A DNA stretch of 38,915 nucleotides from Modestobacter sp. Leaf380 (lineage in GTDB: Bacteria > Actinomycetota > Actinomycetes > Mycobacteriales > Geodermatophilaceae), in contig NZ_LMQC01000025.1 of assembly GCF_001424485.1 (NCBI RefSeq), positions 148,852 through 187,766 on the forward strand, in the 5' to 3' direction. The notes below the pieces were generated by a model. That model worked only from the letters and a program-made list of their open reading frames with translations, ran no database searches and was not told where the DNA came from. A program made the position numbers and the translations under genes. Shown in pieces: positions 7,254 through 38,915 of this stretch. The first letter of the stretch is position 1; every line of letters begins with the position of its first letter.

Positions 7254-7255
7254 GA

Positions 7256-9758: not shown

Positions 9759-9779
9759 GGCTCGGCCTCAGTCCGAGCC
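9759..9779. terminator. Possible shared terminator at the cluster's left border
   Basis: ggctcgg (9759-9765) pairs with ccgagcc (9773-9779) around a 7-base loop. It follows the DUF1707 stop codon and overlaps the last codons of the phosphopantetheinyl transferase gene. The stem is short, so this is a tentative call. Confidence 0.4.
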
Positions 9780-10430
9780 TGCGGGGACGACGACGGCCGT
9801 GGTGATGATCCCCGACGCCACCGACCAGCGACCGGTGAAGCGGGTCAACGGCGCCCCGTCGACCCGGGGGCCGGGGACGAGCAACTCGGCGACGAGGCCG
9901 CCGTCGGGGGTGAGGTGGACCTCGGCGTCGTCGAAGTCCAGCCACCGACCCGTCAGCGGGAACCACGCCTTGTACACCGACTCCTTGGCGCTGAACGTCA
10001 GCCTGTCCCAGTGGACGCCCGGCCGGGACCGCTGCAGCAACGGGAGGGCGGCGCGTTCGCCCGGCCTGGTGACCAGCTCCAGCACCCCCCGCGGCAACGG
10101 TTCGTCCGGCTCGGCGTCGATGCCGAGCGAGCGGACGTGCACGGTGCGGGCCACCGCCGCCGCCCGGTAGCCCCGGCAGTGGGTCATGCTGCCGACGACC
10201 TCGGCCGGCCAGACCGGGGCGCCACCGGCGCCCCTCGGCAGCGGCCCCGGCGGCACGTCGATCGCGCGCAGCGCCGTCCGTGCGCAGTGCCGCACCGTGG
10301 CGTACTCCGCCCGGCGGGCAGGCACGGCCCGCGCCACGTCGGTCTCCTCCTCGGCGTGCACGACGACGGGCGCGGTGTCGGTGCGGGTCGAGCACACCGA
10401 CACCGGCGGTCCGAGGACGGACTCAAGCAC
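9768..10430 (-). CDS. Sfp-type 4'-phosphopantetheinyl transferase
   Basis: About 220 residues. It moves the phosphopantetheine arm from CoA onto the conserved Ser of carrier domains, and so would activate the NRPS and PKS of this cluster. The EntD/Sfp motifs are all present: RAEYATVRHCARTAL (about 40-54), GSMTHCRGYRAAAVA (80-94), LGIDAEPDEPLP (102-113, with the Mg-binding Asp105 and Glu107) and FSAKESVYKAWFPLTGRWLDFDDAEV (146-171, with Glu150 and Lys154). I chose the GTG at 10430 because the protein then begins LESVLG like relatives. This start overlaps the NRPS-1 stop by 8 bases, indicating translational coupling. It is the last gene of the minus-strand operon. Confidence 0.93.
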   Translation of the reverse strand: MLESVLGPPVSVCSTRTDTAPVVVHAEEETDVARAVPARRAEYATVRHCARTALRAIDVPPGPLPRGAGGAPVWPAEVVGSMTHCRGYRAAAVARTVHVRSLGIDAEPDEPLPRGVLELVTRPGERAALPLLQRSRPGVHWDRLTFSAKESVYKAWFPLTGRWLDFDDAEVHLTPDGGLVAELLVPGPRVDGAPLTRFTGRWSVASGIITTAVVVPAGSD

Positions 10431-13400
10431 GGGCAGCCGGTGCGCCGGGCCGGTGCGCAAGGCCCGCCACGAACTCCTCCACATCGGCTTGCGTGATCGG
10501 CTCGACGTGTCCGCCGTGCCTGCTCCACCAGGTCTCGACCGGGGGCACGTAGTCGTCCTCGATGGTCGACAGGTCGACGCCGTCCTCGGTCCGGGGCAGC
10601 AGCAGGACCAGCGGGCGCAGGTCGGCTCCGCCCGGTGGGCGGGCGGCCTCGACCAGCGCGTCCCGGAAGGTGCGGGCGTCCACCGTCTCGAGAGGATGGC
10701 CGCATGCCGTGGTCCAGCTGATCAGGTCATCCCAGGCCAGCCGGTGCGGGCTGATCAGGTGGAAGCAACCGCCGTGGGTGTCGGTGCGGCGCCCGATCTC
10801 GACGATCCCGGCCGCGACCCGGTCGACCGGGGTGAGCGTCATCCCGACCTGCATCGCCGGCACCATCCCCAGGCGGAGCGCGGCCGACATGGCCCTCGTC
10901 ACCAGGTCGTCGGAGTTCGCGACCCCGGTCCGCGTGCTCCACGACACCCGGGCCATGCGGATCACCGTCACGGGCAGGCCGCGCCGGCCGGCCTCCACGA
11001 CCAGGTTCTCCGCCACCCACTTGGACTGCCCGTAGCCGCTGGACCGGGCGGCCGGTGGGTCGACCTGCCCGCTGGTCTCATCCACCTGCCCGCTGTCCAT
11101 CGTCTCCGGGGTGAACACCGACATCGTCGAGACGTGGTGCACCGGCGTCGTCGTGCCCTCGCACGCCAGCCGGAGCACCTCGCGGGTGCCGCCGACGTTG
11201 ACCGCCCGCATCGCCGCGTAGGGGTGCACGGCGTTCACGTCGGCGCCGCAGTGGTAGATCGCCGAGACCGACCGGCCCAGCGCCCCGAAGTCGGCCTCGC
11301 TCAGGCCGAGACGGTCCGCACCCAGGTCGCCGGCCACCACCTCGACCCGGTCCAGCGCCTCGGGCACAGCGGTCCGCCAGCGGTCCGCCGACGCCCGCAG
11401 CCGCGCCTGCGCAGCGTCGACGTCGGCGCCCCGCACGAGGCAGCGCACCCGCCGGTCGGTGGTCCGCAGCAGCTCGGCGAGGACGTGCGCCCCGAGGAAG
11501 CCGGTCGCCCCGGTGAGCAGCACCGGGCCGTCGGGGTCGGCCGGGGGCCCGTGCGGGTGGATTTCCTCGGCGAGCTCTGAGTCCGCGAGGAGCGTCCTGG
11601 CCAGGTCCTCGGTGCTGCCGCCCAGCAGGTGCTGAGCCAGCTGCGCGACCGTCGGGAAGGCCAGTGCGTCGTGCGGGGACATCACGACGCCGAGGTCGTC
11701 GGCGGCAGCGGCCACCCGCAGGGCCGACAGCGAATCGGCGCCGAGGTCGCGCAGCGGGTCCTCGATCCCGAGCCGCTCGACGCCGAGCACGTCCTCCCAC
11801 AGCTCGGTCAGCCGCCGTTCCAGCGCGTTGCGCGGCGCGACGTACGCCGCCGAGGTGGCCGGCACCCGGTCGGACACCGGTAGGGCCGCCCGGTCGACCT
11901 TGTTCGCCGCCGACCTCGGCAGCGCCGGGAGGACGACGAGCAACCCGGGCACCAGGTGCTCGGGCAGCTCCCGCCGCAGCGCAGCGCGCAGTTCCTCGGG
12001 GGTTGGCTGCTCCGGCCCCGGGCACCCGGCGTAGCCGACGAGCCGGCTGTCACCGGCCGGGTTGCGCCCCAGGACGACGACGGCCTCAGCGACCCCGGGC
12101 CGGCGGAGCAGCCGGGCCTCGATCTCCCCGGGCTCGATCCGGTACCCCCGGAAGGACAACTGGTGGTCCCGCCGACCCAGGAACTCCAGGTCCCCCGCCG
12201 CGCGGCGGCGCACGACGTCCCCGGTGCGGTAGACCCGGGCCCCGGGCGGGCCGGCCGGGTCGGGCACGAACCGGTCCGCGGTGAGGTCGGGCCGGCCGCC
12301 GTACCCACGGGCCACGCCCTCGCCACCGACGTAGAGCTCCCCCGGCACCCCCCGCGGCACCGGCTGCAGGTGCCGGTCCAGCACGCGCACCGAGGTGCCC
12401 GCGATGGGCCGGCCGATCGCGACGGGCCGCGGCTGGTCGGGGTCGGCGGGGACGTCGTGGACGATGCAGCCGACGACGGTCTCGGTGGGGCCGTACTCGT
12501 TGACGATGCGCACCCCGGGCACGGCGCGGTGCCACGCCAGCACCGTCTCCAGGGGCAACTGCTCCCCCCCGACCACCACGGTGCCCACCACCGGGCGACC
12601 GGGTGCGTCCGACAGCAGACCGTGCAGGACGTCGAGGTGCCCGGGCGTGGCCTTGAGCAGGTCGATGCCTGGTCCGGCGATCATCCCCGCCACCGCCTCC
12701 GTCTCGCGCCCCACCGGCAGCGCGGTGACCCGCTGCCCGGCCACCAGCGGCACCAGCAGGTTGGTCACGGTGAGGTCGAAGGCGATCGACCCCAGCAGGG
12801 GGGCGCCACCGCCGCCGGGCACGGTGTACGCCTCCATCGCCCAGGTCAGGTAGTTCGCCAGACCGCGGTGGGTCACGAGCACGCCCTTGGGCCGCCCGGT
12901 CGACCCCGAGGTGTAGATGCAGTACGCCAGGTTGTCCGGGTGCACACGACGTGGCACCGGGCCATCGGGCTGGCCCTCGATCGCCGGCCAGTCGCCGTCC
13001 AGGTAGAGGGCCGGGATGTCCAGCGGGGGCAGCCGCCCGTCGAGGTGGTCCTGGGTGAGCAGCATCCGGGCCCCGCAGTCGTGCAGGGCGTGGGCCGACC
13101 GTGCGGGTGGGTGGGCAGGGTCCAGCGGCAGGTAGGCCGCGCCGGCCTTGAGCACGCCGAGCACCCCGACCAGCAGCTCCAGCCCCGGTTCGACGCAGAT
13201 GCCGACGAACTGGTCGCGCCCGATCCCCGAGGTGCGCAGGTAGTGGGCCAGCTTGTTGGAGCGCTCGTCGAGGTCGCGGAAGGTCCACCCGTGGCCGTCG
13301 GGCAGGACCAGGGCGAGTGCGTCGGGCACCGCCCGCGCCGCCGCCTCGAACAGCTGGGGGACGTCGGACGCCGGCTCCGACGGCGCCGCTCCGGTGCTCT

Positions 13401-16400
13401 CCTCGGCCGACCGGCGGAGCTCGTCGTCGGGCAGCCGGGCCGCCCACGCATCGCCGTCGGGGTCCTCGCTCATGGCCACCAGCACCAGCCGGTACATCGC
13501 GGCCAGCCGCTCGCCGTGGTCCCGGTCGACCGCGTCGGGGTGCAGGCGCAGGGTGAGCAGCCCCTGCCGGAAGGCGGTGGCCGACAGGGCGAACTCGATC
13601 TGCGAGTCGTCGATGCTGGCCCCGAAGTCGACCAGCTCCTCGTCGACGGTGCGGAAGTCGAGGTAGTTGAACACCACGTCGAGCAGGCGGCCCCCGCCGG
13701 GCCGGTCACGCTGGATGGCGCCCAGCGGGTAGCGACGGTGCGGCCACAGCTCGATCTCCTGCGCGAAGACCTCGGTGACCAGCTCGCGCCAGGTGGCGGC
13801 CGTGAGCTCGAACGGGAACGGCACCGTGTTGAGGAACAGGCCGTAGAGCCGGTCGGCGCCTGCCACCTCGGGCCGGGTGTCGCACACCAGCCCGCTGAGG
13901 AACCTGGGCTCGTCGGTCAGCATGCTCATGACCTTCAGGTGGGCGGCGTGCAGCACGGCCTTGAATGGCACCTCGGCCGTCCGGGCCAGCGCGCGCAGCC
14001 CCGGCTCCAGGTCGGCGAACATCACCTCCACCCGGATCGGCCCACCGCCGGCGCGCTCGCCTGCGCCGCCCCAGCCGCTGGGCACGGACCACCGGGCCGC
14101 GCCGTCGACCACCCCGCGCCAGTGGTCGCGGTGCGCCGGGTCCGCCAGCGCGGCCCGCTCGGCGGCGACGTGGTCGGCGAAGCGGACCCCCAGCGGTTCC
14201 GGGTCGACCACCGTCTTGCCGTCCCGGAGCTGGCCGTAACAGGTCAGCAGCTCCATCAGGAGCATGTGGTAGCTCCAGCCCTCCATGATCGGGTGGCACT
14301 CGGTGATGATCAGGGACCACTCCCCGGGGGCGCGGACCACCGCGTGCAGCCGGAGCAGCGACGGCGTCGAGACGTCGAAGAGCCGGGCGCGTTCCTCGGC
14401 CATGCGGGCCCGGACCAGCTCGTCCTGCGCGGCCGGGGGCAGGTGCTGCGCGTCCTCGACGGTGGTCGGCAGCTGGGCCGTGCGGTGCACCAGCTGCATC
14501 GGCTCGCTGAAGGTCGCCATGTCGAACCCGGTACGCAGCACCTCCTGCCGCTGGACCACCCGCTCCACCGCCGCGCGGAACGCCGCCGGGGAGAACGGGA
14601 CGCCGTCGCGGACCAGATAGGTGGTTGCGTTGTGGTAGTAGTTCACCGCGCTGTCGGAGAACATCTCGACGAGCATGCCGGCCTGCAGCGTCGTCAGCGG
14701 GTACGCGTCCTCCAGGTCGGCCGCCAGTGCCGCCCGGTCCCGCTCGGGCACCAGGTCGAAGGCCGCTAGCCGCGGTGCGGCGCCGGTCAGCGGCTGCCGG
14801 TCCAGCAGGAGCCCGGCAAGCTCGGCCGGCGTCGAGTGGGCGAAGACGTCGTCCACGGCCAGGTCCAGGCCGGCGGCGCGCAGCTGCCCCACGAGCGCCA
14901 CGGCGCTGAGCGAGTCGCCGCCGATGTCGAAGAAGTCGTCGTCGACGCCGACCTCGGCCAGCCCCAGCGTGCTCGCCAGGGCGGTGACCAGCTGCTGCTC
15001 CAGCGGTGACCGCGGCGCGGCCGCCGTCTCCGCCGCGCCCGAGGCCGCCCGGTCAGGGTCGGGGAGCGCGGCCCGGTCGACCTTGCCGTTGCTGGTGAGC
15101 GGGATGTCCTCGAGGACGACGACGTGCGCCGGCACCATGTGCTCGGGCAGCAGACCGGCGACGAACCGCCGCAGGTCCTCGGCCGACGGGTCCGCGGGGG
15201 CGTCGGTGGTCACGGCGTCGGTGGTCACGTAGGCGACCAGCAGCCCGGTGCCCGCGGCACCGGTCCGCAGGGTGACCACGGCGTCGCGGACGAGCGGGTG
15301 GGTCCGCAGCGCGGACTCGACCTCCCCGGCCTCCACGCGGTGGCCACGCACCTTCAGCTGCTCGTCCCGGCGGCCCAGGAACGCCACGACGCCGTCGGGG
15401 CCCACCCGGGCCCGGTCGCCGGTGCGGTACAGGCGCGCGCCGGGCGGACCGAAGGGGTCGGGCACGAAGCGCTCGGCGGTCAGCCCGGGCAGGTCCCGGT
15501 AGCCCAGGGCGAGCTGCGCGCCGCCCAGGTGCAGCTCGCCCTCCACCCCGGGCGGCACCGGCGCGAGGTCAGGGCCCAGGCAGTGCACCGACGTCCCGGG
15601 GACGGCCCGCCCGATGGGCAGCGACCCGCCGCCGTCGGCCGGCACCCCGGTCGGCGCCTCCACCCGGTGGACGACGTTGGCCACGGTGTTCTCCGTCGGG
15701 CCGTACTCGTTGACCACCACACCGGTGCCCCCCGCGAGGTCCCACCATCGGGCGGCCAGCGACGCCGGGAAGGCCTCGCCCCCGACGACGAGGTGGTGGG
15801 CGAGACCGGCGGCGTCGGCGCCGTCGAGCTGGTCGACCAGGAGCTCCAGGTGCCCGGGGGTCAGCTTGAGGAAGCTGAACGGCCGACCACCCGCGGCCTC
15901 CGCCAGGGCGGGCCCGAGCCTGCGGGTGGACAGGTCCGCCGGCAGCAGGTGCACGGGCTGGCCGGCCACCACCGGCAGGAACAGGGTGGTCACGACCAGG
16001 TCGAAGGCGATCGAGGAGAACAGCGCCGCCCCGTTGCCGTCCGCGGAGAGGTACTCCCCCGCGGCCCACCCCAGGTAGTTCGCCAGGTTCCCGTGGGTGA
16101 CCAGCACACCCTTGGGTCGTCCGGTGCTGCCGGAGGTGTACACCAGGTAGGCGACGGCCGACGGGTCGGGTTCGCCGGGCAGGTCCGCCGACGGCGCGCC
16201 GTCGATCTCGGGTCCGTCCAGGTCGACCGCCAGCACGGCGCCGCCGGCCGAGGCCGCCGGCAGCTCCGAACGGGTGATGGTCAGGACGGCGCCGGAGTCG
16301 GCGAGGACGGCGGCCGACCTCGCGGGCGGGTCGCCGGGGTCCAGGGGGACGTAGGCCGCGCCGGCGCGCCACACGCCGAGCAGGCAGGGCAGCAGGTCCA

Positions 16401-20616: not shown

Positions 20617-20620
<4 letters not shown>
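19037..20620 (-). CDS. CmlA-like nonheme diiron NRPS beta-hydroxylase (metallo-beta-lactamase fold)
   Basis: 527 residues, nearly the length of CmlA (about 530), the diiron oxygenase that beta-hydroxylates an amino acid bound to the NRPS CmlP in chloramphenicol synthesis. The N-terminal 240 residues form a family-specific domain (VYDTDHHATLRFLEPLLYRSE). The C-terminal half is a metallo-beta-lactamase fold with HAHQDH (His301, His303, Asp305, His306), GEH (Glu372, His373) and GADT (Asp398). As I recall, the metal ligands of CmlA have the same spacing. Other shared stretches are FIGMECDGAPLSWLYSSLF and YVYAMGQEDWLQHVM. A hydrolase role is unlikely given this full-length match. Its ATG overlaps the NRPS-2 stop (ATGA), so it is made together with the synthetase it probably serves. 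Which residue it hydroxylates cannot be read from the sequence. Confidence 0.85.
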
Positions 20621-27072
<6,452 letters not shown>

Positions 27073-30100: not shown

Positions 30101-32634
30101 TGGCCGACCGCGGACAGCAGCACCGCCGTGTCCGACTGACGCTGCTGCGGGTGCCGCATGGCGGGGACCGCCAGACCCTGCTTGTCGGCCGGGAGCTGGC
30201 GGCGGACCAGCCCGGTCAGCGTCTGGCCCGGGCCCAGCTCCAGCACGACCTGGCCGGCGTCGCACAGCACCTGCGCGGCGTCGGAGAAGCGCACGGCCGA
30301 GCGCAGGTGGGCCGACCAGTACGCGGGGTCGACCGCCTGCTCGTCGGTCAGCCAGGCGCCGGTCAGGTTGGACAGGACCGGGGTCTCGGGCGCCCGGCGG
30401 GGGACCCCGGCCACCAGCTCCTCGAACCGGCCCAGGACCGGCTCGACCATGGCCGAGTGGAACGCGTGGGAGGTGAGCAGGACCCGGCCCTCGATCCCCT
30501 GGAAGCGCAGGGTGGCGGCGAACCCCTCGATGGCCTGGTCGGTCCCCGAGACCACCGTCAGGTCCGGCGCGTTGACCGCGGCGACGTCCAGGTCGGCGGG
30601 CAGCATCGGCGCGAGCACGTGCTCGGGCAGCGGGACCGCCAGCATCGAACCGCCGGGCAGCTCCTGCATCAGCCGCCCCCGGTCGGCCACCAACCGCAGC
30701 GCGTCGCGCCAGTCGAAGACCCCGGCCACCGTGGCGGCCACGTACTCGCCGATGCTGTGGCCCACCACGGCGTCGGCCGCCAGGCCCCAGCTCTGCACCA
30801 GCCGGGCGAGGGCGTACTCGACCACGAACAGCGCCGGCTGGGTGAACTCGGTGCGGTGGATCCGGTCGTCGGTCCCCCCGTCCTGGTCGCCCGGGTACAG
30901 CACCTCCCGGACGTCCCAGCCGACGTGCTCCCTCAGCACCTCGGCGCAGGCGTCGACGCACTCGGCGAACACGGGCTCGTCGTCGTAGAGCTCACGGCCC
31001 ATGCCGGGGTACTGCGCCCCCTGCCCGGGGAAGGCGAACGTGACCGGCCGGGTCACCCCGCGCGGCGGCACCACCCCGGGTCCGGGCTGGGGGACACCGG
31101 CCGCCAGCCGCTCGGCGGCGTCGGTCCCGTCCGTGGCCACCAGGAACCCCCGCACCGGTCGGGCCGTGCGGCCGACCGCGAGGGTCCAGGCCGCGTCGGC
31201 GAGGTCCTCGGGCCGCTCGCGCAGGTGGGCGCCCACCGCGACCGCGTTGGCCTGCAGCCCGGTGGGGGTGCGGGCCGAGAGCAGGACGAGCTGGTGCCGG
31301 CGACGGGGCGACGAGGACGGTGCGGTCTGGGGGGACTCCTCCAGGACCAGGTGCCCGTTCGTGCCGCCGACGCCGAAGGAGCTGACGCTGGCCCGCAGCG
31401 GGCCGGACTCCGACTTCCAGGGGGTGAGCTCGGTGTTCACGTAGAACGGCGAGGCCGGGAAGTCGATCTGCGGGTTGGGCTCGTCGAAGTTGATGGTGGG
31501 GGGCAGCACGCGGTGGCGCATGGCCAGCACGGTCTTGATGACCCCGGTGACGCCGGCCGCGGCGCCCAGGTGCCCGACGTTGGTCTTGACCGACCCGATC
31601 CCGCAGTACTGCGTGCGGTCGGTGTGCTGGCGGAAGGCCCGCGTCAGGGCGTTGACCTCGATCGGGTCCCCGACGTAGGTGGAGGTCCCGTGGGCCTCGA
31701 CGTAGGAGATCGTGGAGGCGTCGACCCCGGACCGCTGGAGGGCCTGCGTGATGGCGCCGACCTGGCCGTCGATGCTCGGGGCGGTGAAGGCACCCTTGTC
31801 GGCCCCGTCGTTGTTCAGGGCGGTGGCCCGGATGACCGCCAGCACGGTGTCGCCGTCGGCGAGGGCGGCGTCGAGCCGCTTGAGCACCACCACGCCGGCG
31901 CCGCTGCCGAAGACGGTGCCGCGGGCCTTGGCGTCGAAGGTGCGGCAGTGCCCGTCCGGTGAGTAGAGGCCGCCCTCGCTGTAGAAGTAGCCGGACACCC
32001 GAGGGACGAACTCCTCGACCCCTCCGGCCAGCGCCATCTCGCAGTCGCCGTTGCGCAGCGCCTGGGAGGCCAGGTGGATGGCCGTCATGGACGTGGAGCA
32101 GGCCGTCAGGCAGGTGAGGGAGGGGCCCCGCAGGTTGAGCCGGTAGGACGTCCCGGTGGCCAGGTAGTCGGCCGTGTTGGCGATGTTGGTCGAGAGCTGC
32201 CCCATCAGCGCCACCACCTCGGGATGGCGGTTGACGTTGTCCTCGAGGTAGGTGTTGAGCCCGGTCCCGCCGTACACGCCCACCCGGCCGGGGTAGGTGG
32301 CGGCGTCGTAGCCGGCGTTCTGCAGCGCCGTGTCGCACTCCTCGAGGAAGACCCGGTGCTGGGGGTCGAGGATCTCGGCCTCCCGGGGGCTCATCCCGAA
32401 GTACCCGGCGTCGAACATCTCCGCGTCCTCGGTGACCGGCGCGGCCTTCACGTAGTCCGGGTTGGCGATGGAGGTCTCGGGGACGCCGGACTCCCGCAGC
32501 TCGTCATCGCTGAAGAAGGTGATGCACTCGACGCCGGCGACGATGTTGGCCCAGAACTCGTCGACGTCCCGGGCCCCCGGGAACCGCCCGGCCAACCCGA
32601 TGATGGCGATCCCCGTGTCTTCCCCACCGCTCAC
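27103..32634 (-). CDS. Type I PKS module, order KS-AT-KR-DH-T
   Basis: 1843 residues. KS is about 5-430 (active Cys179 in TACSTS, His315 in EAHGTST, His355 in KTNVGHL). AT is about 530-830 (FPGQGAQ; GHSIGEY with Ser627; HAFH at 723-726, the pattern linked to malonyl-CoA). KR is about 1140-1340 (GGLGGIG; Ser1290, Tyr1304 and Asn1308 in YCAAN). DH follows at about 1360-1630 (HxxxGxxxxP at 1393-1402, DEHRLLGRPTLPGT; second motif LHPALLD with Asp1557). The carrier domain is at the end (DLNGNSL, Ser1780). There is no enoylreductase, so one C2 extension with reduction and dehydration to an enoyl group is predicted. DH after KR reverses the usual DH-KR order. The GTG start at 32634 follows ggaggg, and the protein begins at the KS with no loading domain, so it should receive a chain from another protein. 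Confidence 0.94.
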   Translation of the reverse strand: MSGGEDTGIAIIGLAGRFPGARDVDEFWANIVAGVECITFFSDDELRESGVPETSIANPDYVKAAPVTEDAEMFDAGYFGMSPREAEILDPQHRVFLEECDTALQNAGYDAATYPGRVGVYGGTGLNTYLEDNVNRHPEVVALMGQLSTNIANTADYLATGTSYRLNLRGPSLTCLTACSTSMTAIHLASQALRNGDCEMALAGGVEEFVPRVSGYFYSEGGLYSPDGHCRTFDAKARGTVFGSGAGVVVLKRLDAALADGDTVLAVIRATALNNDGADKGAFTAPSIDGQVGAITQALQRSGVDASTISYVEAHGTSTYVGDPIEVNALTRAFRQHTDRTQYCGIGSVKTNVGHLGAAAGVTGVIKTVLAMRHRVLPPTINFDEPNPQIDFPASPFYVNTELTPWKSESGPLRASVSSFGVGGTNGHLVLEESPQTAPSSSPRRRHQLVLLSARTPTGLQANAVAVGAHLRERPEDLADAAWTLAVGRTARPVRGFLVATDGTDAAERLAAGVPQPGPGVVPPRGVTRPVTFAFPGQGAQYPGMGRELYDDEPVFAECVDACAEVLREHVGWDVREVLYPGDQDGGTDDRIHRTEFTQPALFVVEYALARLVQSWGLAADAVVGHSIGEYVAATVAGVFDWRDALRLVADRGRLMQELPGGSMLAVPLPEHVLAPMLPADLDVAAVNAPDLTVVSGTDQAIEGFAATLRFQGIEGRVLLTSHAFHSAMVEPVLGRFEELVAGVPRRAPETPVLSNLTGAWLTDEQAVDPAYWSAHLRSAVRFSDAAQVLCDAGQVVLELGPGQTLTGLVRRQLPADKQGLAVPAMRHPQQRQSDTAVLLSAVGQVWQTGARLDVPALWSGETRHRIPLPRVPFEKQRLWLDGRRTAGTGVEQAGDTGDGETGPYYVPVWKETALPTPGPVDTDAVWVVLEPTGTAAVGELTHRLRAAGARVVAVRAGAEQGVDGDTCTVRPREVADYSAVLTAALADGAPRLKVVHGWLAGELEGATAMGRARDGLDRGFFSILAAAQAVSSNAAAPPTDFYLLTSDMQDVVGTETVEPVKNAVEGFVRLLPKEFSATTCRSVDVPTGAGAACVEQLLREVTSDAAEPMVAYRGRKRWTWSHQQVDLTRPAADAPTLRDGGVYVITGGLGGIGLVMARELAERHQAKLVLLGRNGLPPREHWAEVLDGPDTVQSTRIRAVQEMESLGGEVLVVAADVTDVEQLAAVRREAEAAFGPVDGVLHAAGITGGGMVETRSPDDAEDVLAPKVFGTLAVDEVFGDDVDLVVCYSTFAVFTGDYGLFDYCAANAVMDSWARSRSGGRAHVVTINWPIWAKVGMAADIDLPDMLASFEQGHRYEKVAHPLLGSRLLGAGGDEIVFVKTLTTADWVADEHRLLGRPTLPGTSLVEMVRAAYQEVTGADTALVRDIVFAQPVSFDERRTVHLVMTPGPAGVYDVAVVDPADGARLTTGRVGPGPRDTAPHHDLDAWRAVCHHEDEAESPQEDIITLGRRWADAIKAHWHGDRSDDGLFDELVLVELDEAFLDDLSDFGLHPALLDKANALGQTIVARQNSHVPFGYDQITVRAPLPRRFYSYIKHVDDTSGALIRSDIVLAGEDGAELVAIKGFTMFEFADESMSTASLDAAVLPPAAESSAADPHTSQKLERAMLRTQQVDFGIDPVDGYPMLREVLDSGVAPQVIVCPDSFVKRMRMAAKVTRDALEEQMKAAPKASSSVAVRSLITPYAEPENDIQRVVAEMWADTLGLDRVGVDDDFFDLNGNSLIAVQLVARIREQFQVDLTVAGLFETRVPRALSARIEDLVVQLLVGMSDEDAAARLRAIAVRT

Positions 32635-32684: not shown

Positions 32685-32755
32685 ACCGGGCTCCGGGGTT
32701 GTCCGAAGCCGGACGTGAGGAGTGTCGACGTCCGTGCGGGCCCGACGACAGGGCT

Positions 32756-32771
32756 TGGCGACTAGTCGCCA
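32756..32771. promoter_or_regulatory. Perfect 16-bp palindrome, candidate operator
   Basis: tggcgactagtcgcca is a perfect palindrome lying about 122 to 137 bases upstream of the PKS start. Read on the minus strand with one flanking base, ctggcgactagt differs by a single base from a site in the exporter/mbtH divergent promoter region (34969-34980). Recurrence in front of two cluster transcription units suggests the binding site of a dimeric regulator. Confidence 0.45.
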
Positions 32772-32822
32772 GGACCTCGCCGGGCACCCCGCCAGGACCC
32801 CGTCGGACACCCCGCGCACGGG

Positions 32823-34886
32823 TCAGCGCTGCCCGAGGAACGCCACGACGGCCAGGCCGACCAGGACGACGGGGACCGCGACCGGGACGGCTGCCCGCCA
32901 TCGGGCGACCCGGTCCTCCGGGCGCAGCCCGCACGCGCCGGCCAGCACGGCGCCGACCAGGAACCCGCCGACGTGGGCCGCCACGGCCGTGCCGGGCACC
33001 GCGAAGGTCGTCACCGCCCCGACGAGCACCAGTCCGACGGCCAGGGCAGGGTTGCGGCCCAGCCTGAGGTCGACGAGCAGCAGCGCGGCGAACAGCCCGA
33101 AGACCGCTCCCGACGCCCCCGCGGTGAGCGACCCGTGGTCGAGCAGGTAGGTGGCCACGCCGGCGCCCAGGGCGCTGAGCAGGTACACCCCCAGGAACCG
33201 GGCCGGGCCCAGCACAGGTTCCAGCCGGCGGCCCGCGAGCACCAGCAGCAGCATGTTCACGGCGAGGTGGCCCAGCCCGTAGTGCAGGAAGCTGGCCGTG
33301 CCGAGGCGCCAGACCTGCCCGTCATCCACGGCGGGCCCGTTCATCTCCCCCGCCAGGTGCAGGGGGCCGATGCCGTCCCAGACGACGTCCTCGAGGGTCA
33401 GGCCCTGCTGCCGGCCGACGACGACGAGACCCACGACGGCCACCAGCACGTTCACCGCCACGAGCGCGGTCGTCATGCGCCGGGCCCGGGCGGCCCGGCC
33501 CGGCTGGCCCCTCCGCGCTGGCCGGTCGGTGTCATCGGCGTCGGGGTAGACGTCGGCCGGGTCGTGGGCCCAGACGCCCTCCCGCAGGCGGAGCACCGCG
33601 TACCCGGTCAGCCCGGCGGCCAGGACCGCGGCGACGACCAGGGGCACGCGCAGCGCCGGCTCCCGGCCGACCAGCGGGATGGCCACCGTCACCAGACCGC
33701 CACCGATCAGCGACCCGATCGACAGCGGTCCCCAGGCCAGCAGCCGGTAGATGCTGTTGACCCGGCCGAGCATGTGCCCGGGGACGGTGCGCTGCCGGTA
33801 GGAGATCGTCACGACGTTCCAGATGACGGCCAGTGACCCGGCGACCAGCAGGGCCGCGGCCACCACGAGGGCGCTGGAGGTCAGGCCGATGGTCGTGCTG
33901 ACGGCGACGTTGCCCACCAGGGTGCCCAGCAGGACCCGGCGCGGGCCGAACCTGTCCTCCAGGCCCGGGGCCACGGCCGAGCCCGTCGCGGCCCCGACGG
34001 CGCCCACCGCGAACAGCAGGCCGTACTCACCTGCCCCCAACCCGAGGATCTCCTGGGCGAACAGCACCTGGGTGCTGATGACGACGGCGCTGGCCAGGTT
34101 GAGCAGGCCGAGGAAGATGCCGAGCTGCCGCAGCACCCGGTGCTGCCAGAAGAAGCGCATGCCGGCGGCCATCTCGGTCCGCAGCGAGCGGTCGGCCGGG
34201 GGTGCCACCACGACGGCGGGGCCCCCGGCGGGCACCTGGGGGCGGACCAGCACCAGGAGCGCGGCCGCCACGGCGAACAGCCCGGCGTCCAGGGCGAAGG
34301 GCAGCGAGACCGACACCAGCAGCAGCCAGCCGCCGATCGCGGGGCCGAGGAAGGTGCCCCCGACCGTGTCGGCGAGCATGAGGTGACTGTTGGCCCGGTT
34401 GATGTGGGCCGGGCGCACGAGGCTGGGCAGGATGGTCTGGCTGGCGTTCTCGTTCATCACCGCGAACGAGCCCAGCAGGAACCCGACCAGGTAGATCATC
34501 CACAGGCTGGTGACGTCGAGGAGCACCGCCGCGGCCAGCAGCCCGATGACCAGCGCGCGGGTCAGGTGGGTGCTGGAGATGAGCCGGCGGTGCTCGTAGC
34601 GGTCGACCCAGACCCCCACCGGCAGGCTGAACACCAGCCACGGCAGCTCGGCGGCCACCACGGCCCCGGCGACGAGGAGCGGGTCGCGGGTCAGCTGGGT
34701 GGTCAGCCACGGGAAGGCCACGAAGGTGATGCCCGACCCGAGGCTGGCGACGAAGGTCGCCCCGAGGAGCGCCCAGAAGCTGCGGCCCATGGCGGCCTCG
34801 GCGACCGGTGCGGCGACCGGTGGAGTGCCCGGTGCGGCGACCGGCGGGGTGCCCGTGCGGGTCGTGTCGGTATCGGCGTCGGTCAC
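32823..34886 (-). CDS. MFS exporter fused to a rhomboid-family serine protease domain
   Basis: 687 residues in one open frame. Residues 1-33 are Pro/Ala/Thr-rich with a short internal duplication (GTPPVAAP). Residues 35-435 form a 12-helix MFS transporter of the EntS-like drug/siderophore exporter type (SLPVGVWVDRYEHRRL loop, NENASQTILPSLV, PGHMLGRVNSIYRLLAWG). A polar linker (about 436-470) leads to a rhomboid domain (471-655): HYGLGHLAVNMLL (His535, His540, Asn544), the nucleophile Ser592 in TAGASGAVFG and the base His638 in AAHVGG. Both catalytic residues are therefore present. The GTG start at 34886 has ggaggag at ideal spacing. The internal ATG at 33476, where a separate rhomboid gene would begin, has no ribosome site, which supports a true fusion. 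Export of the cluster product is inferred from context. Confidence 0.88.
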   Translation of the reverse strand: MTDADTDTTRTGTPPVAAPGTPPVAAPVAEAAMGRSFWALLGATFVASLGSGITFVAFPWLTTQLTRDPLLVAGAVVAAELPWLVFSLPVGVWVDRYEHRRLISSTHLTRALVIGLLAAAVLLDVTSLWMIYLVGFLLGSFAVMNENASQTILPSLVRPAHINRANSHLMLADTVGGTFLGPAIGGWLLLVSVSLPFALDAGLFAVAAALLVLVRPQVPAGGPAVVVAPPADRSLRTEMAAGMRFFWQHRVLRQLGIFLGLLNLASAVVISTQVLFAQEILGLGAGEYGLLFAVGAVGAATGSAVAPGLEDRFGPRRVLLGTLVGNVAVSTTIGLTSSALVVAAALLVAGSLAVIWNVVTISYRQRTVPGHMLGRVNSIYRLLAWGPLSIGSLIGGGLVTVAIPLVGREPALRVPLVVAAVLAAGLTGYAVLRLREGVWAHDPADVYPDADDTDRPARRGQPGRAARARRMTTALVAVNVLVAVVGLVVVGRQQGLTLEDVVWDGIGPLHLAGEMNGPAVDDGQVWRLGTASFLHYGLGHLAVNMLLLVLAGRRLEPVLGPARFLGVYLLSALGAGVATYLLDHGSLTAGASGAVFGLFAALLLVDLRLGRNPALAVGLVLVGAVTTFAVPGTAVAAHVGGFLVGAVLAGACGLRPEDRVARWRAAVPVAVPVVLVGLAVVAFLGQR

Positions 34887-35066
34887 GTCGCTCCTCCGGC
34901 CGGGCCTGGGGGTGCCCGGGTCCGGGTCAAGCGGACGCCTCCGCCGGACCGGCGTCAACGTGCTGACCACTTGTCGCCAGCTCGCTCGGGTGGGTTGCCG
35001 GCGCCGTGCCGCGACGGCCAGCATCGGGGGACGGTGCCGGTCGGGCGCCCCGTCGAGGAGGTTGCC
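34887..35066. promoter_or_regulatory. Divergent promoter region between the exporter and mbtH
   Basis: 180 bases separate the starts of the minus-strand exporter and the plus-strand mbtH. The region should contain both promoters. It holds the operator-like site at 34969-34980 and two ttgac words on the minus strand (near 34926-34930 and 34953-34957) that could be -35 elements, but no good -10 follows either. Confidence 0.45.
34969..34980. promoter_or_regulatory. Half-palindrome matching the PKS upstream operator
   Basis: On the minus strand this reads ctggcgacaagt, 11 of 12 bases identical to the left half and centre of the palindrome at 32756-32771. It lies 83 to 94 bases upstream of the exporter start and 87 to 98 upstream of mbtH. 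Confidence 0.4.
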
Positions 35067-35270
35067 GTGTTCGAGGACGACGACGACCGCCACTACACGG
35101 TGGTGGTCAACGACGAGGAGCAGTACTCCATCTGGCCGGTGGGCCGGGAGGTCCCCGCCGGGTGGGCCGAGGTGGGGGTGACCGGGCTGAAGGCCGCCTG
35201 CCTCGAGCACGTGAACGAGGTCTGGACCGACATGCGGCCCAAGAGCCTGCGCCTGCGCATGGGTGGGTGA
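35067..35270 (+). CDS. mbtH: MbtH-like protein
   Basis: A 67-residue chaperone-like partner of NRPS adenylation domains. The family signature is complete: NDEEQYSIWP near the N-terminus, VPAGW, and CLEHVNEVWTDMRPKSLR at the C-terminus with the conserved Trp residues. MbtH proteins bind adenylation domains and raise their solubility or activity, so it probably serves the NRPS genes of this cluster. It is on the opposite strand to them. The start is a GTG at 35067 behind the good site gaggagg. The next gene overlaps its stop codon as GTGA. Confidence 0.97.
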   Translation: MFEDDDDRHYTVVVNDEEQYSIWPVGREVPAGWAEVGVTGLKAACLEHVNEVWTDMRPKSLRLRMGG

Positions 35271-36226
35271 GGGTGCCCCGCACCGGGGTGGCCGTCGAGC
35301 TCGAGGAGCTGCCGATCGGCGCCCTGGTCGAGCGCACCCGGCTCGCCGAGGAGCTCGGCATGGACTCGGCCTGGTTGGTGCAGCTGCCCAACATGCGCGA
35401 CAGCGCGTCGCTGCTGGCCGCGATGGCCGCCACCACCGACCGGATCGGCATCGGGGCCGGCATCCTCCCGGTCTACACCCGCCCCCCGGTGGTGATGGCG
35501 CAGACCGCCGCCACCGTGGACGAGCTGTCCGGGGGTCGGTTCACCCTCGGGCTGGGCCTCGGTCACCGGCTCACCGCCGAGTGGGCCCTGGGCGTCCCCC
35601 AGGGGCCACCGCTGGCCGCGATGCGGGAGTACCTGGAGGTCGTGCGCACCCTGCTGCACGACGGCGAGGTGCACGTGGACGGGGCGCACTACCGCGGCCA
35701 CGCCCGGTACGCACCGCCCCGCCGGGACGACCTGCCGGTGTGCCTGGGGGCGCTCAACCCGAGGATGGTCGAGCTGGCCGGCGAGGCCGCCGACGGCCTG
35801 CTGCTGTGGAACTGCACGGTGGGCTACGTACGCGACGTCGCCGTCCCCCGGCTGCACGACTCCCTGCGCAGGGCCGGCCGCGACCCCGACGGGTTCCCGG
35901 TCGTCGTCATCACCCCGGCCGCGGTGTCCGAGGACCTCGACCACGACACCGCCTGGATGCGGGACTACCTGCAGAACTACGCCCGGATCCCGAACTACCG
36001 GGCGATGTACGAGGCCAGCGGCCTGGGCCACGACCTGACCGGTGGCCAGGTGGGGGACGACCTGCTGCACGCCGCCAGCGTCATCGGCGCCGACGACCTG
36101 GTCACCGAGCGGGTGGCCGAGTTCGCCGCCGCCGGGGCCACCGAGGTGGTCGTGTCGCCGATGGCCAGCGCCCACCACGACGCCGGGCTGTGGCGCCGGA
36201 CCCTCCAGGCCGCGCTGCGGGCCTGA
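35267..36226 (+). CDS. LLM-class flavin/F420-dependent oxidoreductase
   Basis: About 319 residues with the luciferase-like TIM-barrel pattern: TRLAEELGMDSAWL near the N-terminus, IGIGAGILPVYTRPPVVMAQTAATVDELSGGRFTLGLGLGH, then PVCLGALNPRMVELAGEAADGLLLWN and a C-terminal GADDLVTERVAEFAAAGATEVVVSP. The last stretches favour the F420-dependent branch over FMN-dependent monooxygenases, but the cofactor is not certain. The GTG at 35267 overlaps the mbtH stop (GTGA); a second in-frame GTG at 35273 is possible. Co-translation with mbtH ties it to the cluster, where it may oxidise or reduce the product or a building block. The exact reaction cannot be stated. Confidence 0.85.
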   Translation: MRVPRTGVAVELEELPIGALVERTRLAEELGMDSAWLVQLPNMRDSASLLAAMAATTDRIGIGAGILPVYTRPPVVMAQTAATVDELSGGRFTLGLGLGHRLTAEWALGVPQGPPLAAMREYLEVVRTLLHDGEVHVDGAHYRGHARYAPPRRDDLPVCLGALNPRMVELAGEAADGLLLWNCTVGYVRDVAVPRLHDSLRRAGRDPDGFPVVVITPAAVSEDLDHDTAWMRDYLQNYARIPNYRAMYEASGLGHDLTGGQVGDDLLHAASVIGADDLVTERVAEFAAAGATEVVVSPMASAHHDAGLWRRTLQAALRA

Positions 36227-36239
36227 CCGCGGTCAGGCC
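36220..36239. terminator. 20-bp palindrome containing both convergent stop codons
   Basis: ggcctgaccgcggtcaggcc is a perfect palindrome. The plus-strand oxidoreductase stop (36224-36226) and the minus-strand thioesterase stop (36233-36235) sit at mirror positions inside it, with 6 bases between them. As RNA it has almost no loop, so a shorter stem would form. It is the only visible terminator for either gene. Confidence 0.45.
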
Positions 36240-36994
36240 GGCGGGCCGGCGGAGCCGATGCCGCCCAGCTCCGCCGCGACCAGCTGCACGATGGAGGCCC
36301 GGCGCCGGTCGAAGAAGGCGTGGTCACCGGGGAACAGCCGGAGGGTGAAGTCCCCGGTGGTCTCCTCGCGCCAACGCATCATGGTCTCCACCGAGGTGGT
36401 GACGTCGTCGAGCGCGCCGAAGACGGTGACGGGCACCCGCAGCGGGTCGCCGGGGCGGTAGGTGTCGCTCTCGAAGACCTCGTAGTCGGCCCGCACGCTG
36501 GGCTCGAAGAGCGCGAAGAGGCCGGGGTCGTCGATGATCACCGGTGGGACGACGCCCAGGGCCCGCAGGTGGTCGGCGAGGTCGGTGCTCGACATGCGGT
36601 GCACGGCGCTGTCGCGCCGGACGCTGGACGGCGACGGGCAGGCGCAGACGAACAGGTGCGCCGGCGGGCGTCCGGTCTGCTCGAGCAGGCGGGCGAGCTC
36701 GAAGGCCGTCAGCGCGCCCGAGCAGTAGCCGAACAGCGCGTACGGGAGGTCGAGCTGGTCGGACAGGCCACCGACCAGCTGGCTGACCAGGTCGCCCATC
36801 CGGGTCACCAGCGGTTCCCGCAGTCGGCTCTCGCGGCCGGGCAGGCGCACCGCGCACAGGTCGACGCCGGGGGGCAGGCCGTCGCCCCACCCGCGGAAGG
36901 TGGACCCCCCTCCCCCGGCGTGCGGCAGGCAGATCAGTCGCGAGGTCGCCGTCCCCGTCGGGCGCAGCCGCACCACCCAGGGCGAGCTCAGCAT
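36233..36994 (-). CDS. Type II thioesterase with Cys in the nucleophile position
   Basis: A 253-residue stand-alone alpha/beta-hydrolase of the GrsT/RifR type, which removes stalled or wrong acyl groups from NRPS/PKS carrier domains. Family marks are LICLPHAGGGGSTFRGW, VRLPGRESRLREP and LFGYCSGALTAFELARLL. The usual GHSMG is GYCSG here, so Cys91 replaces the catalytic Ser. Asp196 (FGALDD) and His225 (PGDHAFF) complete the triad. Cys-type thioesterases are known and in some systems change the release chemistry, so an altered role is possible. The ATG overlaps the NRPS-3 stop by 7 bases, showing it is coupled to that synthetase. Confidence 0.9.
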   Translation of the reverse strand: MLSSPWVVRLRPTGTATSRLICLPHAGGGGSTFRGWGDGLPPGVDLCAVRLPGRESRLREPLVTRMGDLVSQLVGGLSDQLDLPYALFGYCSGALTAFELARLLEQTGRPPAHLFVCACPSPSSVRRDSAVHRMSSTDLADHLRALGVVPPVIIDDPGLFALFEPSVRADYEVFESDTYRPGDPLRVPVTVFGALDDVTTSVETMMRWREETTGDFTLRLFPGDHAFFDRRRASIVQLVAAELGGIGSAGPPA

Positions 36995-38915
36995 GGCCGG
37001 TCACCGTCCGTCCCGTCCGCACGGCCCTCGAGCAGCACCGCCAGTCGGTGGACGGTGGGGTGCTCGAAGACCGCGCTGACCGGGACCCGGGACACCGTCG
37101 ACCGCCCGACCAGGTCGGCCAGCTGCGCGGCGAGCAGGCTGTGCCCGCCCAGGTCGAAGAAGTCCTCGTGCACCCCGACGACGTCGACCCCGAGCACCTG
37201 GGCCCACAGCTCCGCCAGGCGCTGCTCGAGAGCGCTGCCGGGTTCGCCGACCGGTTCCCGCGCCGCCTCGACGGGGGCGGGCAGGGCCGACCGGTCGAGC
37301 TTGCCCGTGACGGTGCTGGGCAGGTCGTCCACCACCGTGATGCTGCTGGGCACGAGGTGGGCGGGCAGTGCAGCGCGGGCCGCGGTCCGCACCTGCGCGG
37401 CGGTCACCGACCCGTCGGTCACCACGAAGGCGGCCAGCTCGGTGCCACCGGTGCCCCCGCGACGCCACGGCACGACGGCGGCCTGGCGCACCGCGGGCAC
37501 CGCCTCCAGGGCACGTTCGACCTCGCCGGGCTCGACCCTGCTGCCGCGGACCTTGAGCTGGTGGTCGACCCGGCCGGCCAGCTGGACCTGCCCGTCGGGC
37601 AGCAGCCGCGCCCGGTCACCCGTGCGGTAGAGCCGGGCCCCCGGGAGGTAGGGGTGCGGGACGAACCGCTCGGCCGTGAGGTCGGGCCGCCCCCGGTAGC
37701 CGCGGGCCAGGCAGGCACCCCCCACGTGCAGGTGCCCCCGGGCGCCCACCGGGGCGGGTTGCCCGGCGCCGTCGAGCACGTGGAGCTCGACGTTGGCCAG
37801 CGGGGACCCGATCGGGACCTCGGACGAGGACGAGGACGACGACGACCACGACGGCGACCACGACGAGTCCCACGCCTCGGCCGACCCGTACAGGTTGTGC
37901 AACGACCGGCCGGGCAGCTGCGCGGCGAACTGCTGGGCGAGGTCGCCGGGCAACGGTTCCCCGGAGCAGACCCACAGCCGCAGCGCGGGGAGCGCGGAGC
38001 CCAGGTCCTCGACGTGCGCGAGCAGCGCGCGCAGCAGGGTGGGCACCAGCAGGAAGCGAGTGACCCCGCCCCGGGCGAGCACGTCGACCAGGGCGCAGGG
38101 GTCGCGTCCCTGGTCGGTCCCGACGACGACCGTCGGGATCCCCTGCAGCACGCCGCCGAGGAGCTCGGCGAGCGAGTCCACGAACGCGATCGGGGTCTTC
38201 ATGCAAGCCACGTCGCCCGGGGCCGCCGGGCACTGCGCGGCGAACCACCCGACCCGGTTGACCACGGCCCGGGCGGTGATCTCCACGCCCTTGGGCGCAC
38301 CGGTGGACCCGGAGGTGTAGATGACCGCGACCACGTCGTCCGGGGTGGCGAGCGGGGGCTGCGCGGCGCTGTGCGCGCCCTGGTCGACGGGCAGGTCGTC
38401 CAGCAGCAGCAGGGACGGCCCCGCGGGCAGCGCCGCCGCCAGGTCCGCGGTGGTGAGCACGGTGCCCACGCCGGCATCGGCCAGCAGGTGCGCCGTCCGG
38501 GCCGTCGGGTGCTGCACGTCCAGCGGCACGTAGGTCCCGCCCACCTTCCACACGGCCAGCACGGCGACCGGCAGCTCCAGGCCCGGGGGCAGGTGCACAC
38601 CCACGGTGGTCCCATGGCCCACCCCGGCACGGGTCAGCAGCCGGGCGAGCACGCCGGAGCGCTCGTCGAGCTCCCGGTGGGTCAGCTGCGCCCCCCCGTC
38701 GGTGAAGGCCGCGGCGTCAGGGGTCTCGACTGCTCCCCGGGTGAAGCGCGCCACCAGGCTGTCGTCGCCGAGCTCGAGGACCGGCCCCGGCACCAGCTCG
38801 TGCACGATGCGGTGCCGCTCGTCGGGGCCGGGGAGGACCAGGGTGTCCACAGGGGCCAGCGGATCGGCCACCACCTGCGCCAGCACGTGCCGCCAGTGAC
38901 CCACCATCCGCTCCA
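36988..38915 (-). CDS. NRPS-3, C-terminal part (...C-A-T), cut by the window edge
   Basis: The visible 641 residues start in the last helix of a condensation domain (ERMVGHWRHVLAQVVADP), followed by an adenylation domain and a carrier domain (FFDLGGHSL); the protein ends there, with no release domain. Adenylation motifs: IYTSGSTGAPKG, NLYGSAE, YRTGDRARLL, VRGSRVEPGEVE and TGKLD. The Asp that normally holds the alpha-amino group (FD in motif A4) is replaced: the motif reads AFVDSLAEL. My code is VDALVSLDSK, whose V-D start recalls beta-alanine and other non-alpha amino acid domains. The loop after NLYGSAE is a Ser/Trp-rich tract (see repeat). Further modules probably lie beyond 38915. The thioesterase gene overlaps its stop. 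Confidence 0.93.
   Translation of the reverse strand, partial: ERMVGHWRHVLAQVVADPLAPVDTLVLPGPDERHRIVHELVPGPVLELGDDSLVARFTRGAVETPDAAAFTDGGAQLTHRELDERSGVLARLLTRAGVGHGTTVGVHLPPGLELPVAVLAVWKVGGTYVPLDVQHPTARTAHLLADAGVGTVLTTADLAAALPAGPSLLLLDDLPVDQGAHSAAQPPLATPDDVVAVIYTSGSTGAPKGVEITARAVVNRVGWFAAQCPAAPGDVACMKTPIAFVDSLAELLGGVLQGIPTVVVGTDQGRDPCALVDVLARGGVTRFLLVPTLLRALLAHVEDLGSALPALRLWVCSGEPLPGDLAQQFAAQLPGRSLHNLYGSAEAWDSSWSPSWSSSSSSSSEVPIGSPLANVELHVLDGAGQPAPVGARGHLHVGGACLARGYRGRPDLTAERFVPHPYLPGARLYRTGDRARLLPDGQVQLAGRVDHQLKVRGSRVEPGEVERALEAVPAVRQAAVVPWRRGGTGGTELAAFVVTDGSVTAAQVRTAARAALPAHLVPSSITVVDDLPSTVTGKLDRSALPAPVEAAREPVGEPGSALEQRLAELWAQVLGVDVVGVHEDFFDLGGHSLLAAQLADLVGRSTVSRVPVSAVFEHPTVHRLAVLLEGRADGTDGDRPC
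37822..37866 (-). repeat. Trinucleotide repeat coding a Ser-rich loop in NRPS-3
   Basis: Plus-strand gac/gag-type triplets are repeated, with the unit tcgtggtcg occurring twice on the coding strand. They encode SSWSPSWSSSSSSSS inside the adenylation domain, between the NLYGSAE motif and VPIGSPL. Homologues have an ordinary TW-type loop here. The pattern suggests replication slippage that kept the frame. Confidence 0.75.

What the first reader, a model, noticed from the sequence alone, without database searches (positions are those of the whole stretch)
9768..38915. Hybrid NRPS-PKS cluster with reductive release that I cannot match to a known compound
Carrier-protein logic in reading order: NRPS-3 (non-alpha amino acid) - PKS (malonyl, KR, DH) - NRPS-2 (unknown, Ser) - NRPS-1 (Asn/Asp-like, Asn/Asp-like, reductase). 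Accessory genes are an MbtH protein, a thioesterase, a CmlA-like hydroxylase, an LLM oxidoreductase, an exporter and a phosphopantetheinyl transferase. Domain content is seen in the sequence. The order of the assembly line and an aldehyde or alcohol terminus are inference.
Basis: partly seen in the sequence, partly recalled or inferred. Interest (0 to 1): 0.75.

Follow-up and report, generated by a model that had tools for sequence, protein, structure and literature searches.

The report
Unmatched peptide assembly-line gene cluster
A bacterium of unknown name carries a large, apparently intact enzyme assembly line that should build an unusual small peptide with an asparagine-derived aldehyde end and a urea-bearing amino acid; the kind of machine is familiar, but its product could not be matched to a described compound with the tools at hand.

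Summary
In detail: window 9768-38915 carries a hybrid NRPS-PKS cluster (C-A-T-C-A-T-R; CmlA; C-A-T-C-A-T; KS-AT-KR-DH-T; A-T of a split NRPS; TE, MbtH, LLM, MFS, PPTase) with intact motifs. But the window shows only part of it. It stops at a scaffold N; contig C25 ends 1 kb further on, and its last 98 bases equal the first 98 of contig C5, with no other exact copy found. C5 adds three NRPS modules and, decisively, 2,3-diaminopropionate genes (SbnB; SbnA-like, below cut-off) and a carbamoyltransferase with the published diaminopropionate-transcarbamylase motifs HDLP and TRWQTTG. So the unknown residue is probably beta-ureidoalanine or diaminopropionate. The terminal pair is Asn-Asn, and the reductase has intact catalytic residues. 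Predicted line: X - Orn-like - X - beta-Ala-like - C2 - Uda/Dap - Ser - Asn - Asn - aldehyde. New member of a known kind. MIBiG and antiSMASH could not be run; 'unmatched' rests on open-access papers and the collections searched.

The parts
9768..10484 (-). 4'-phosphopantetheinyl transferase; taken as the left end of the cluster
   Evidence: PF17837 + PF01648; nearest NCBIfam PptT, below its cut-off
10423..18087 (-). N1: C-A(Asn)-T-C(variant)-A(Asn)-T-R; last synthetase, reductive release (start at 18087 is a candidate; the ORF opens at 18126)
   Evidence: Pfam, TIGR01746 thioester reductase over its cut-off, R residues, Asn codes
10810..11517 (-). Terminal reductase domain core (NAD_binding_4) of N1
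   Evidence: PF07993 5.2e-60; best match by sequence among solved chains is MxaA 4u7w, 1.7e-67
13357..14766 (-). Second C domain of N1, active-site line ECHPIMEGW instead of HHxxxDG
   Evidence: matches at E<=1e-60 in 23 of 394 genomes of the class, own included
19037..20620 (-). CmlA-type diiron beta-hydroxylase, HxHxDH present
   Evidence: PF18456 6.7e-68, motif
20617..27072 (-). N2: C-A(Uda or Dap)-T-C-A(Ser)-T
   Evidence: Pfam; A1 55% identical to the first A domain of the NBC_01244 cluster; A2 code DVWHVSLVD read by hand
27103..32634 (-). PKS: KS-AT(malonyl type)-KR-DH-T, KR before DH (start at 32634 is a candidate)
   Evidence: Pfam, active-site motifs
32823..34886 (-). MFS exporter in one open frame with a C-terminal rhomboid protease domain (start is a candidate)
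   Evidence: PF07690, PF01694
35067..35270 (+). MbtH-like protein (start approximate)
   Evidence: PF03621 1.1e-21
35267..36226 (+). Luciferase-fold (LLM) oxidoreductase, nearest to F420-type subfamilies (start approximate)
   Evidence: PF00296 1.2e-57; best NCBIfam TIGR03564, below its cut-off
36233..36994 (-). Stand-alone thioesterase with GYCSG in place of GxSxG
   Evidence: PF00975, motif
36988..38915 (-). N3: C(cut)-A(beta-Ala-like)-T; the gene continues past the window into C25 to 188779 and on to contig C5
   Evidence: Pfam, C domain, contig overlap, code VDALVSLDS

Best explanation
It is a collinear hybrid NRPS-PKS assembly line split over two contigs: NA (A-T-C-A-T, C5) - NB (C-A-T, C5) - N3 (C-A-T, across the junction) - PKS - N2 - N1. 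The cell makes 2,3-diaminopropionate with the SbnA-like and SbnB proteins and carbamoylates it with the DPTCase-like enzyme to beta-ureidoalanine. NA starts the chain with a residue of unknown identity (code DVEDLGAMT) and adds an Orn-like residue; NB adds another unassigned, perhaps basic, residue; N3 adds beta-alanine or a similar beta-amino acid; the PKS adds one malonyl unit, reduced and dehydrated to an alkene; N2 adds beta-ureidoalanine (or Dap) and Ser; N1 adds Asn and Asn, one of them probably beta-hydroxylated by CmlA on its carrier. The reductase then releases the chain with NAD(P)H as a peptide aldehyde, which may close onto its own side-chain amide as a 5-hydroxypyrrolidinone or be reduced further to the alcohol. 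The MFS protein exports it. Shown: genes, domains, motifs, contig overlap, co-occurrence with related clusters. Inferred: substrates, order, hydroxylation site, aldehyde, export.
For: Domains. Junction: 98-base exact end overlap; a genome search with it found 2 places at 100%, the two contig ends, and 2 at 69-71% (40 of 106 candidates scored). SbnB 396.5 bits, over its cut-off 326.9, at C5:10014-10985; SbnA-like gene 283.8 bits, SbnA being its best family, at C5:15206-16075. Carbamoyltransferase at C5 about 11765-12685 with HDLP and TRWQTTG, the pair that PMC4581275 gives for DPTCase (passages); the genome search found two other transcarbamylase-like genes. N2-A1 matches the first A domain of the NBC_01244 synthetase at 55% and those of NBC_01005 and NBC_00376 at 46-48%, the other 11 listed matches being 33-38%. 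All three records carry a carbamoyltransferase with HDLP and TRWQTTG, and NBC_01244 has sbnA and sbnB annotated just upstream. R-domain residues intact. Seven C domains for eight A domains plus a PKS; no C domain outside this line in the genome at E<=0.001.
Against: Four of the eight A-domain calls (NA-A1, NA-A2, NB, N2-A1) rest on loose or indirect reading, and N3's beta-Ala call on a partial code match. The SbnA-like match is under its curated cut-off (283.8 vs 349.95). DPTCase and DBTCase motifs differ little, and PMC4581275 calls their separation unclear. Compared the other way, NBC_00376 A1 scores only slightly better with N2-A1 than with N2-A2 (291 vs 279 bits) and has the higher identity with N2-A2 (48.8 vs 46.1%). 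N1's second C domain departs from HHxxxDG. The C5-C25 junction falls inside N3, and an N with duplicated flanks on each side breaks its frame in the assembly, so N3 is intact only if those are assembly artefacts. Transcription, product and mass were not testable.
Confidence: 0.65

Rival explanations
1. The Ser-Asn-Asn end works as in the bleomycin family, where Ser-Asn-Asn is worked into a pyrimidine unit (recalled); the product is a bleomycin-like metal-binding peptide with beta-Ala and one PKS unit, and the reductase only offloads it.
For: Ser, Asn, Asn in the same order, a beta-Ala-like code and a single PKS module; [quoted passage not shown]
Against: Here Ser-Asn-Asn is at the end of the line and not at its start; no Cys or His code was read among the eight A domains; a terminal R domain and Dap/ureido genes are not mentioned for that family in the passages seen.
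Confidence: 0.08
2. A siderophore: Orn-like, Ser and beta-hydroxylated residues bind iron, and the R domain makes an alcohol end as in myxochelin.
For: The MFS protein has a match to EntS and N1 one to the myxochelin synthetase MxcG, both far below their cut-offs; Ser, Orn and beta-hydroxy residues are common siderophore parts (recalled).
Against: The terminal codes are Asn and not Asp; none of the proteins scanned matched an ornithine N-hydroxylase or a catechol-synthesis family, though not every ORF was scanned.
Confidence: 0.12
3. The terminal R domain acts as a redox-dead Dieckmann-type domain and gives a tetramic acid instead of an aldehyde.
For: Some R-like domains do this (recalled).
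Against: The Tyr-Lys pair, Ser/Thr and the TGATGFLG dinucleotide loop are intact, and the best match among solved chains is the MxaA reductase.
Confidence: 0.05
4. The carbamoyltransferase and Dap genes serve a separate pathway, or beta-ureidoalanine enters at NA or NB rather than at N2.
For: NA-A1 and NB codes are also unassigned; the genes lie on C5 next to NA and far from N2.
Against: The genome has no C domain outside this line, and N2-A1 is the best match by score to the first A domain of NBC_00376 and the best match of N2-A1 in each of three DPTCase-type clusters is such a first A domain.
Confidence: 0.15

Closest known systems
Streptomyces plasmid clusters NBC_01244, NBC_00376 and NBC_01005 (no product named in the records)
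   Same: MbtH, an A-T-C-A-T synthetase whose first A domain matches N2-A1 at 46-55%, N1-like synthetases (39-44% in the listed pieces), variant C domains, a carbamoyltransferase 59-63% identical with HDLP and TRWQTTG, MFS; sbnA/sbnB directly upstream in NBC_01244 and some 10-20 kb upstream in NBC_01005
   Different: The Dap-type domain starts the line there; NBC_00376 p1 and p2 have no reductase or PKS domain by Pfam; no CmlA match in the three stretches; NBC_01244 carries fatty-acyl genes
Herbidospora sakaeratensis cluster (L014, L093)
   Same: N1-like synthetase (49% over N1 residues 7-2118) with the same two Asn codes, the variant C domain (58%), and CmlA (68%) directly after it
   Different: Ends in a third C domain instead of a reductase; no carbamoyltransferase match in the four stretches compared
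Viomycin/capreomycin and zwittermicin pathways
   Same: Dap carbamoylated by a DPTCase to beta-ureidoalanine in viomycin and zwittermicin (PMC4581275 passages)
   Different: Cyclic pentapeptide made by five modules in viomycin and capreomycin (PMC9403184 and PMC12400406 passages); here eight A domains, a PKS module and a reductive end
Bleomycin-type clusters
   Same: Ser and Asn codes in the order Ser-Asn-Asn, a beta-Ala code, one PKS module (PMC3777966 passages)
   Different: Place of Ser-Asn-Asn in the line, no Cys code, reductive release
Ramoplanin-type beta-hydroxyasparagine
   Same: A diiron beta-hydroxylase working with Asn (recalled, no call)
   Different: The rest of the assembly line (recalled)

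Membership tests
Hybrid NRPS-PKS assembly line | A, T, C modules plus a KS-AT-ACP module encoded together | tested here: met
Hybrid NRPS-PKS assembly line | Active-site residues present in carriers, KS, AT, KR, DH | tested here: met
   C-domain motifs vary and N1's second one is ECHPIMEGW
Reductive-release (R-domain) synthetase | C-terminal thioester reductase over curated cut-off | tested here: met
   TIGR01746 284.9 vs 213.35 bits
Reductive-release (R-domain) synthetase | TGxxGxxG, Ser/Thr and YxxxK | tested here: met
Reductive-release (R-domain) synthetase | Aldehyde or alcohol product | not testable with these tools
   needs an enzyme assay or the product
Diaminopropionate transcarbamylase (DPTCase) | HDLP instead of HCLP, and (T/S)RWQTTG instead of DxxxSMG | tested here: met
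   against PMC4581275
Diaminopropionate transcarbamylase (DPTCase) | Dap biosynthesis genes beside it | tested here: met
   SbnB over cut-off; SbnA-like gene has SbnA as best family but is under the cut-off
Diaminopropionate transcarbamylase (DPTCase) | Carbamoylation of Dap | not testable with these tools
   needs an enzyme assay
CmlA-type beta-hydroxylase | CmlA N-terminal domain plus metallo-lactamase-fold HxHxDH | tested here: met
Bleomycin family | Ser-Asn-Asn at the start of the line, Cys modules at its end | tested here: not met
   Ser-Asn-Asn lies at the end and no Cys code was read
Tuberactinomycin (viomycin) family | Five-module cyclic pentapeptide line | tested here: not met
   eight A domains, a PKS module and an R domain
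Tuberactinomycin (viomycin) family | Capreomycidine biosynthesis genes | not tested
   not searched for
A described MIBiG cluster | Same gene order and codes | not testable with these tools
   MIBiG is not held; ten paper searches listed none with this layout by title or abstract start

The most novel reading that the evidence does not exclude
The cluster makes a so far undescribed family of ureido-peptide aldehydes, X-Orn-X-(5-aminopentenoyl)-Uda-Ser-Asn-Asn-al, with a beta-hydroxylated asparaginal end that closes to a hydroxypyrrolidinone and serves as a protease inhibitor for Asn-cutting or related enzymes.
Probability: 0.2. Interest if true: 0.65.

Novelty: new member of a known kind. Interest (0 to 1): 0.42.

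Why it matters
Orphan hybrid clusters are common, so the machine itself is not surprising. What is useful is a concrete, testable prediction: beta-ureidoalanine genes joined to an Asn-Asn-reductase end is a combination that none of the loci compared here shows, it gives a mass-spectrometry handle (urea loss, aldehyde trapping), and the similar A domains found with DPTCase-type enzymes (hand-read DALQWATID here, DALQFATVD in NBC_00376, DAWQFATID in NBC_01244) offer a candidate code for diaminopropionate or beta-ureidoalanine. It also shows how a scaffold N can hide part of a pathway from a window-based scan.

Tried and rejected
Considered and rejected: a truncated or dead cluster (N1, N2, PKS, NA and NB are open; the breaks in N3 are single N's with 98-99-base duplicated flanks, read as assembler overlaps). 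Asp instead of Asn for N1 (Glu at position 322). A Dieckmann-type R domain. Bleomycin and tuberactinomycin membership (see membership table). The idea that the variant C domain of N1 is special to this cluster: 23 of 394 class genomes, own included, have a match at E<=1e-60, and 28 plasmid records at E<=1e-50.

Led nowhere: two PKS searches, of the class and of the order, gave no answer, so relatives of the PKS were sought only in the plasmid collection (706 records at E<=1e-50; the 15 listed are 36-41% identical). In the class searches 3 candidates or 4 candidates per genome were scored in the rows shown, so their counts are lower bounds. The ten paper searches listed no cluster with this layout; two returned nothing, and of the papers listed only passages of five were looked at (PMC10880069, PMC3777966, PMC4581275, PMC9403184, PMC12400406). 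The zwittermicin cluster paper was not held. An automatic code reader misplaced position 278 in NA-A1, NB, N2-A2, N1-A2 and the first A domains of NBC_01005 and NBC_00376, found no code for several domains and failed on N2-A1; the codes given for the window cluster are read by hand with the recalled GrsA positions, and position 517 was not read. A regular expression for the TRWQTTG loop was wrong and was corrected. The organism was not identified. I did not use structure prediction.
Full report
What is in the window. On the minus strand, in order of transcription: N3 (A-T seen, C cut), a stand-alone thioesterase, an MFS/rhomboid frame, a PKS with KS-AT-KR-DH-T, N2 with C-A-T-C-A-T, a CmlA-type hydroxylase, N1 with C-A-T-C-A-T-R, and a phosphopantetheinyl transferase. 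An MbtH gene and a luciferase-fold oxidoreductase lie on the plus strand between PKS and thioesterase. Of six ORFs scanned to the left, three matched VanW/PG-binding, BrkB and DUF1707 families and three matched nothing, so nothing biosynthetic was seen there. KS Cys/His/His, AT GHSIGE and HAFH (malonyl type, recalled), KR and DH motifs, nine carrier serines and the R-domain TGATGFLG, HVST and YGQSK are present.

The window shows only part of the pathway. C25 ends at 188779. One base after the window lies an N whose two flanks are the same 99 bases; C5 has an N at position 322 with a 98-base repeat. The last 98 bases of C25 are identical to the first 98 of C5; a search of the genome with them found two places at 100% (those two ends) and two others at 69-71%, 40 of 106 candidates being scored. 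Both contig ends encode parts of a C domain in the same direction: the profile covers positions 4-63 and 35-141 on C5 and 110-451 on C25. I conclude that the contigs join there, in the middle of N3. On C5 follow NB (C-A-T, 614-3883), NA (A-T-C-A-T, 3880-9969), SbnB (10014-10985), a short-chain dehydrogenase, a carbamoyltransferase, a SARP/BTAD regulator and an SbnA-like gene (15206-16075). The nine C-domain rows found in the whole genome reduce to seven domains, all in this line.

The ureido amino acid. The carbamoyltransferase (C5 about 11765-12685, minus) is an OTCase-fold enzyme below the NCBIfam ornithine cut-offs. Against solved ornithine carbamoyltransferases it has Asp for the Cys of HCLP and TRWQTTG in place of the DxxxSMG loop (motifs confirmed). 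PMC4581275 (passages only) states that HDLP with (T/S)RWQTTG marks 2,3-diaminopropionate transcarbamylase, which makes beta-ureidoalanine in the viomycin and zwittermicin pathways; it also says that the separation from the diaminobutyrate enzyme (TRWQSMG) is not yet certain. The search of the genome found two further transcarbamylase-like genes, on C8 and C22. SbnB scores over its curated cut-off (396.5 vs 326.9); the SbnA-like gene is the genome's best match to SbnA but below its cut-off (283.8 vs 349.95). In plasmid records a 63% identical carbamoyltransferase sits directly after an N1-like synthetase in NBC_00376 and NBC_01005, and in NBC_01244 sbnA, sbnB, MbtH, two synthetases, a 59% identical carbamoyltransferase and an MFS gene follow each other. 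All three enzymes have HDLP and TRWQTTG. A Streptomyces clavuligerus plasmid has a 62.7% relative with both motifs, near two ornithine-cyclodeaminase-like genes and a PALP-family gene.

Which domain loads it. Against the synthetases of these three clusters it matches the first A domain of NBC_01244 at 55% over 401 residues and those of NBC_01005 and NBC_00376 at 46-48%; the other 11 listed matches are 33-38%. Compared the other way, with the eight A domains of this cluster as subjects, NBC_00376 A1 scores 291 bits with N2-A1 and 279 with N2-A2, but its identity is higher with N2-A2 (48.8 vs 46.1%). The A domain next to the S. clavuligerus carbamoyltransferase also prefers N2-A1 (204 vs 176 bits), though its code looks different. 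I take N2-A1 as beta-ureidoalanine or diaminopropionate; the two cannot be told apart here.

Other substrates. N1-A1 reads DLTKVGEVA and N1-A2 DLTKVGEVG; the second is the L-Asn code printed in Table 1 of PMC3777966 (passage). N2-A2 reads DVWHVSLVD, close to the two Ser codes of that table. N3 reads VDALVSLDS and shares V, D, A, V and S with its beta-Ala code VDATVSIADK; this is looser. NA-A2 DVGEAGVVA resembles an Orn code (recalled); NA-A1 DVEDLGAMT and NB DVEHVGAIA cannot be assigned beyond 'perhaps basic'. Codes were read by hand from alignments.

The Asn-Asn end. N1's second C domain has ECHPIMEGW in place of the classic HHxxxDG; the Herbidospora homologue (58% identical) has ECHAILEGW and the NBC_00376 one ECHPVIEGW. 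Matches are widespread (23 of 394 class genomes, own included, at E<=1e-60), so the sub-group is probably functional. Herbidospora sakaeratensis has the same Asn-Asn synthetase and CmlA side by side, but ends in a C domain and not a reductase. CmlA itself is rare near the host: 1 of 112 genomes of the family at E<=1e-60, the own one, and 6 of 394 of the class at E<=1e-90, own included. The genome-contig scan confirmed 156 stretches and kept the best 80; three of these match over full length above 50% identity. An R domain match at E<=1e-50 is in 5 of 60 relatives, own included, and in none of the 8 other members of the genus searched. This pattern suggests gain by transfer or repeated loss; neither was tested.

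How it most likely works. See the best explanation. Collinearity, hydroxylation site and aldehyde end are inference.

Novelty. Each part is known. I found no described cluster with this combination, but MIBiG, antiSMASH and most subscription papers were not available, so I rate it a new member of a known kind, of moderate interest.

Noticed in passing
window 32823-35210 (-): An MFS exporter and a rhomboid protease domain share one open reading frame without a stop between them; either a fusion or two genes in one frame (a candidate rhomboid start is at about 33476).
   Followed up: partly
window 36233-36994 (-): The stand-alone thioesterase has Cys at the nucleophile position (GYCSG); the three relatives compared in L013, L093 and L016 have GHSMG or GHSLG.
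   Followed up: partly
G000:C25:148851, C25:187767 and C5:322: Single N's. Those at C25:187767 and C5:322 have 99- and 98-base duplicated flanks, read as assembler overlaps; the one at C25:148851, just left of the window, shows no such repeat. Two of them set the window limits.
   Followed up: yes
window 27103-32634 (-): The PKS has KR before DH (KS-AT-KR-DH-T), the reverse of the usual order (recalled).
   Followed up: no
L131 (NZ_CP108489.1 215000-262000): A Streptomyces plasmid cluster with fatty acyl-AMP ligase, sbnA, sbnB, a 6737-residue synthetase with several variant C domains and the same type of carbamoyltransferase; no product named in the record.
   Followed up: partly
window 13357-14766 (-): A C-domain sub-group with CHxxxEGW or similar in place of HHxxxDG, widespread in the class; its function is not explained here.
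   Followed up: partly
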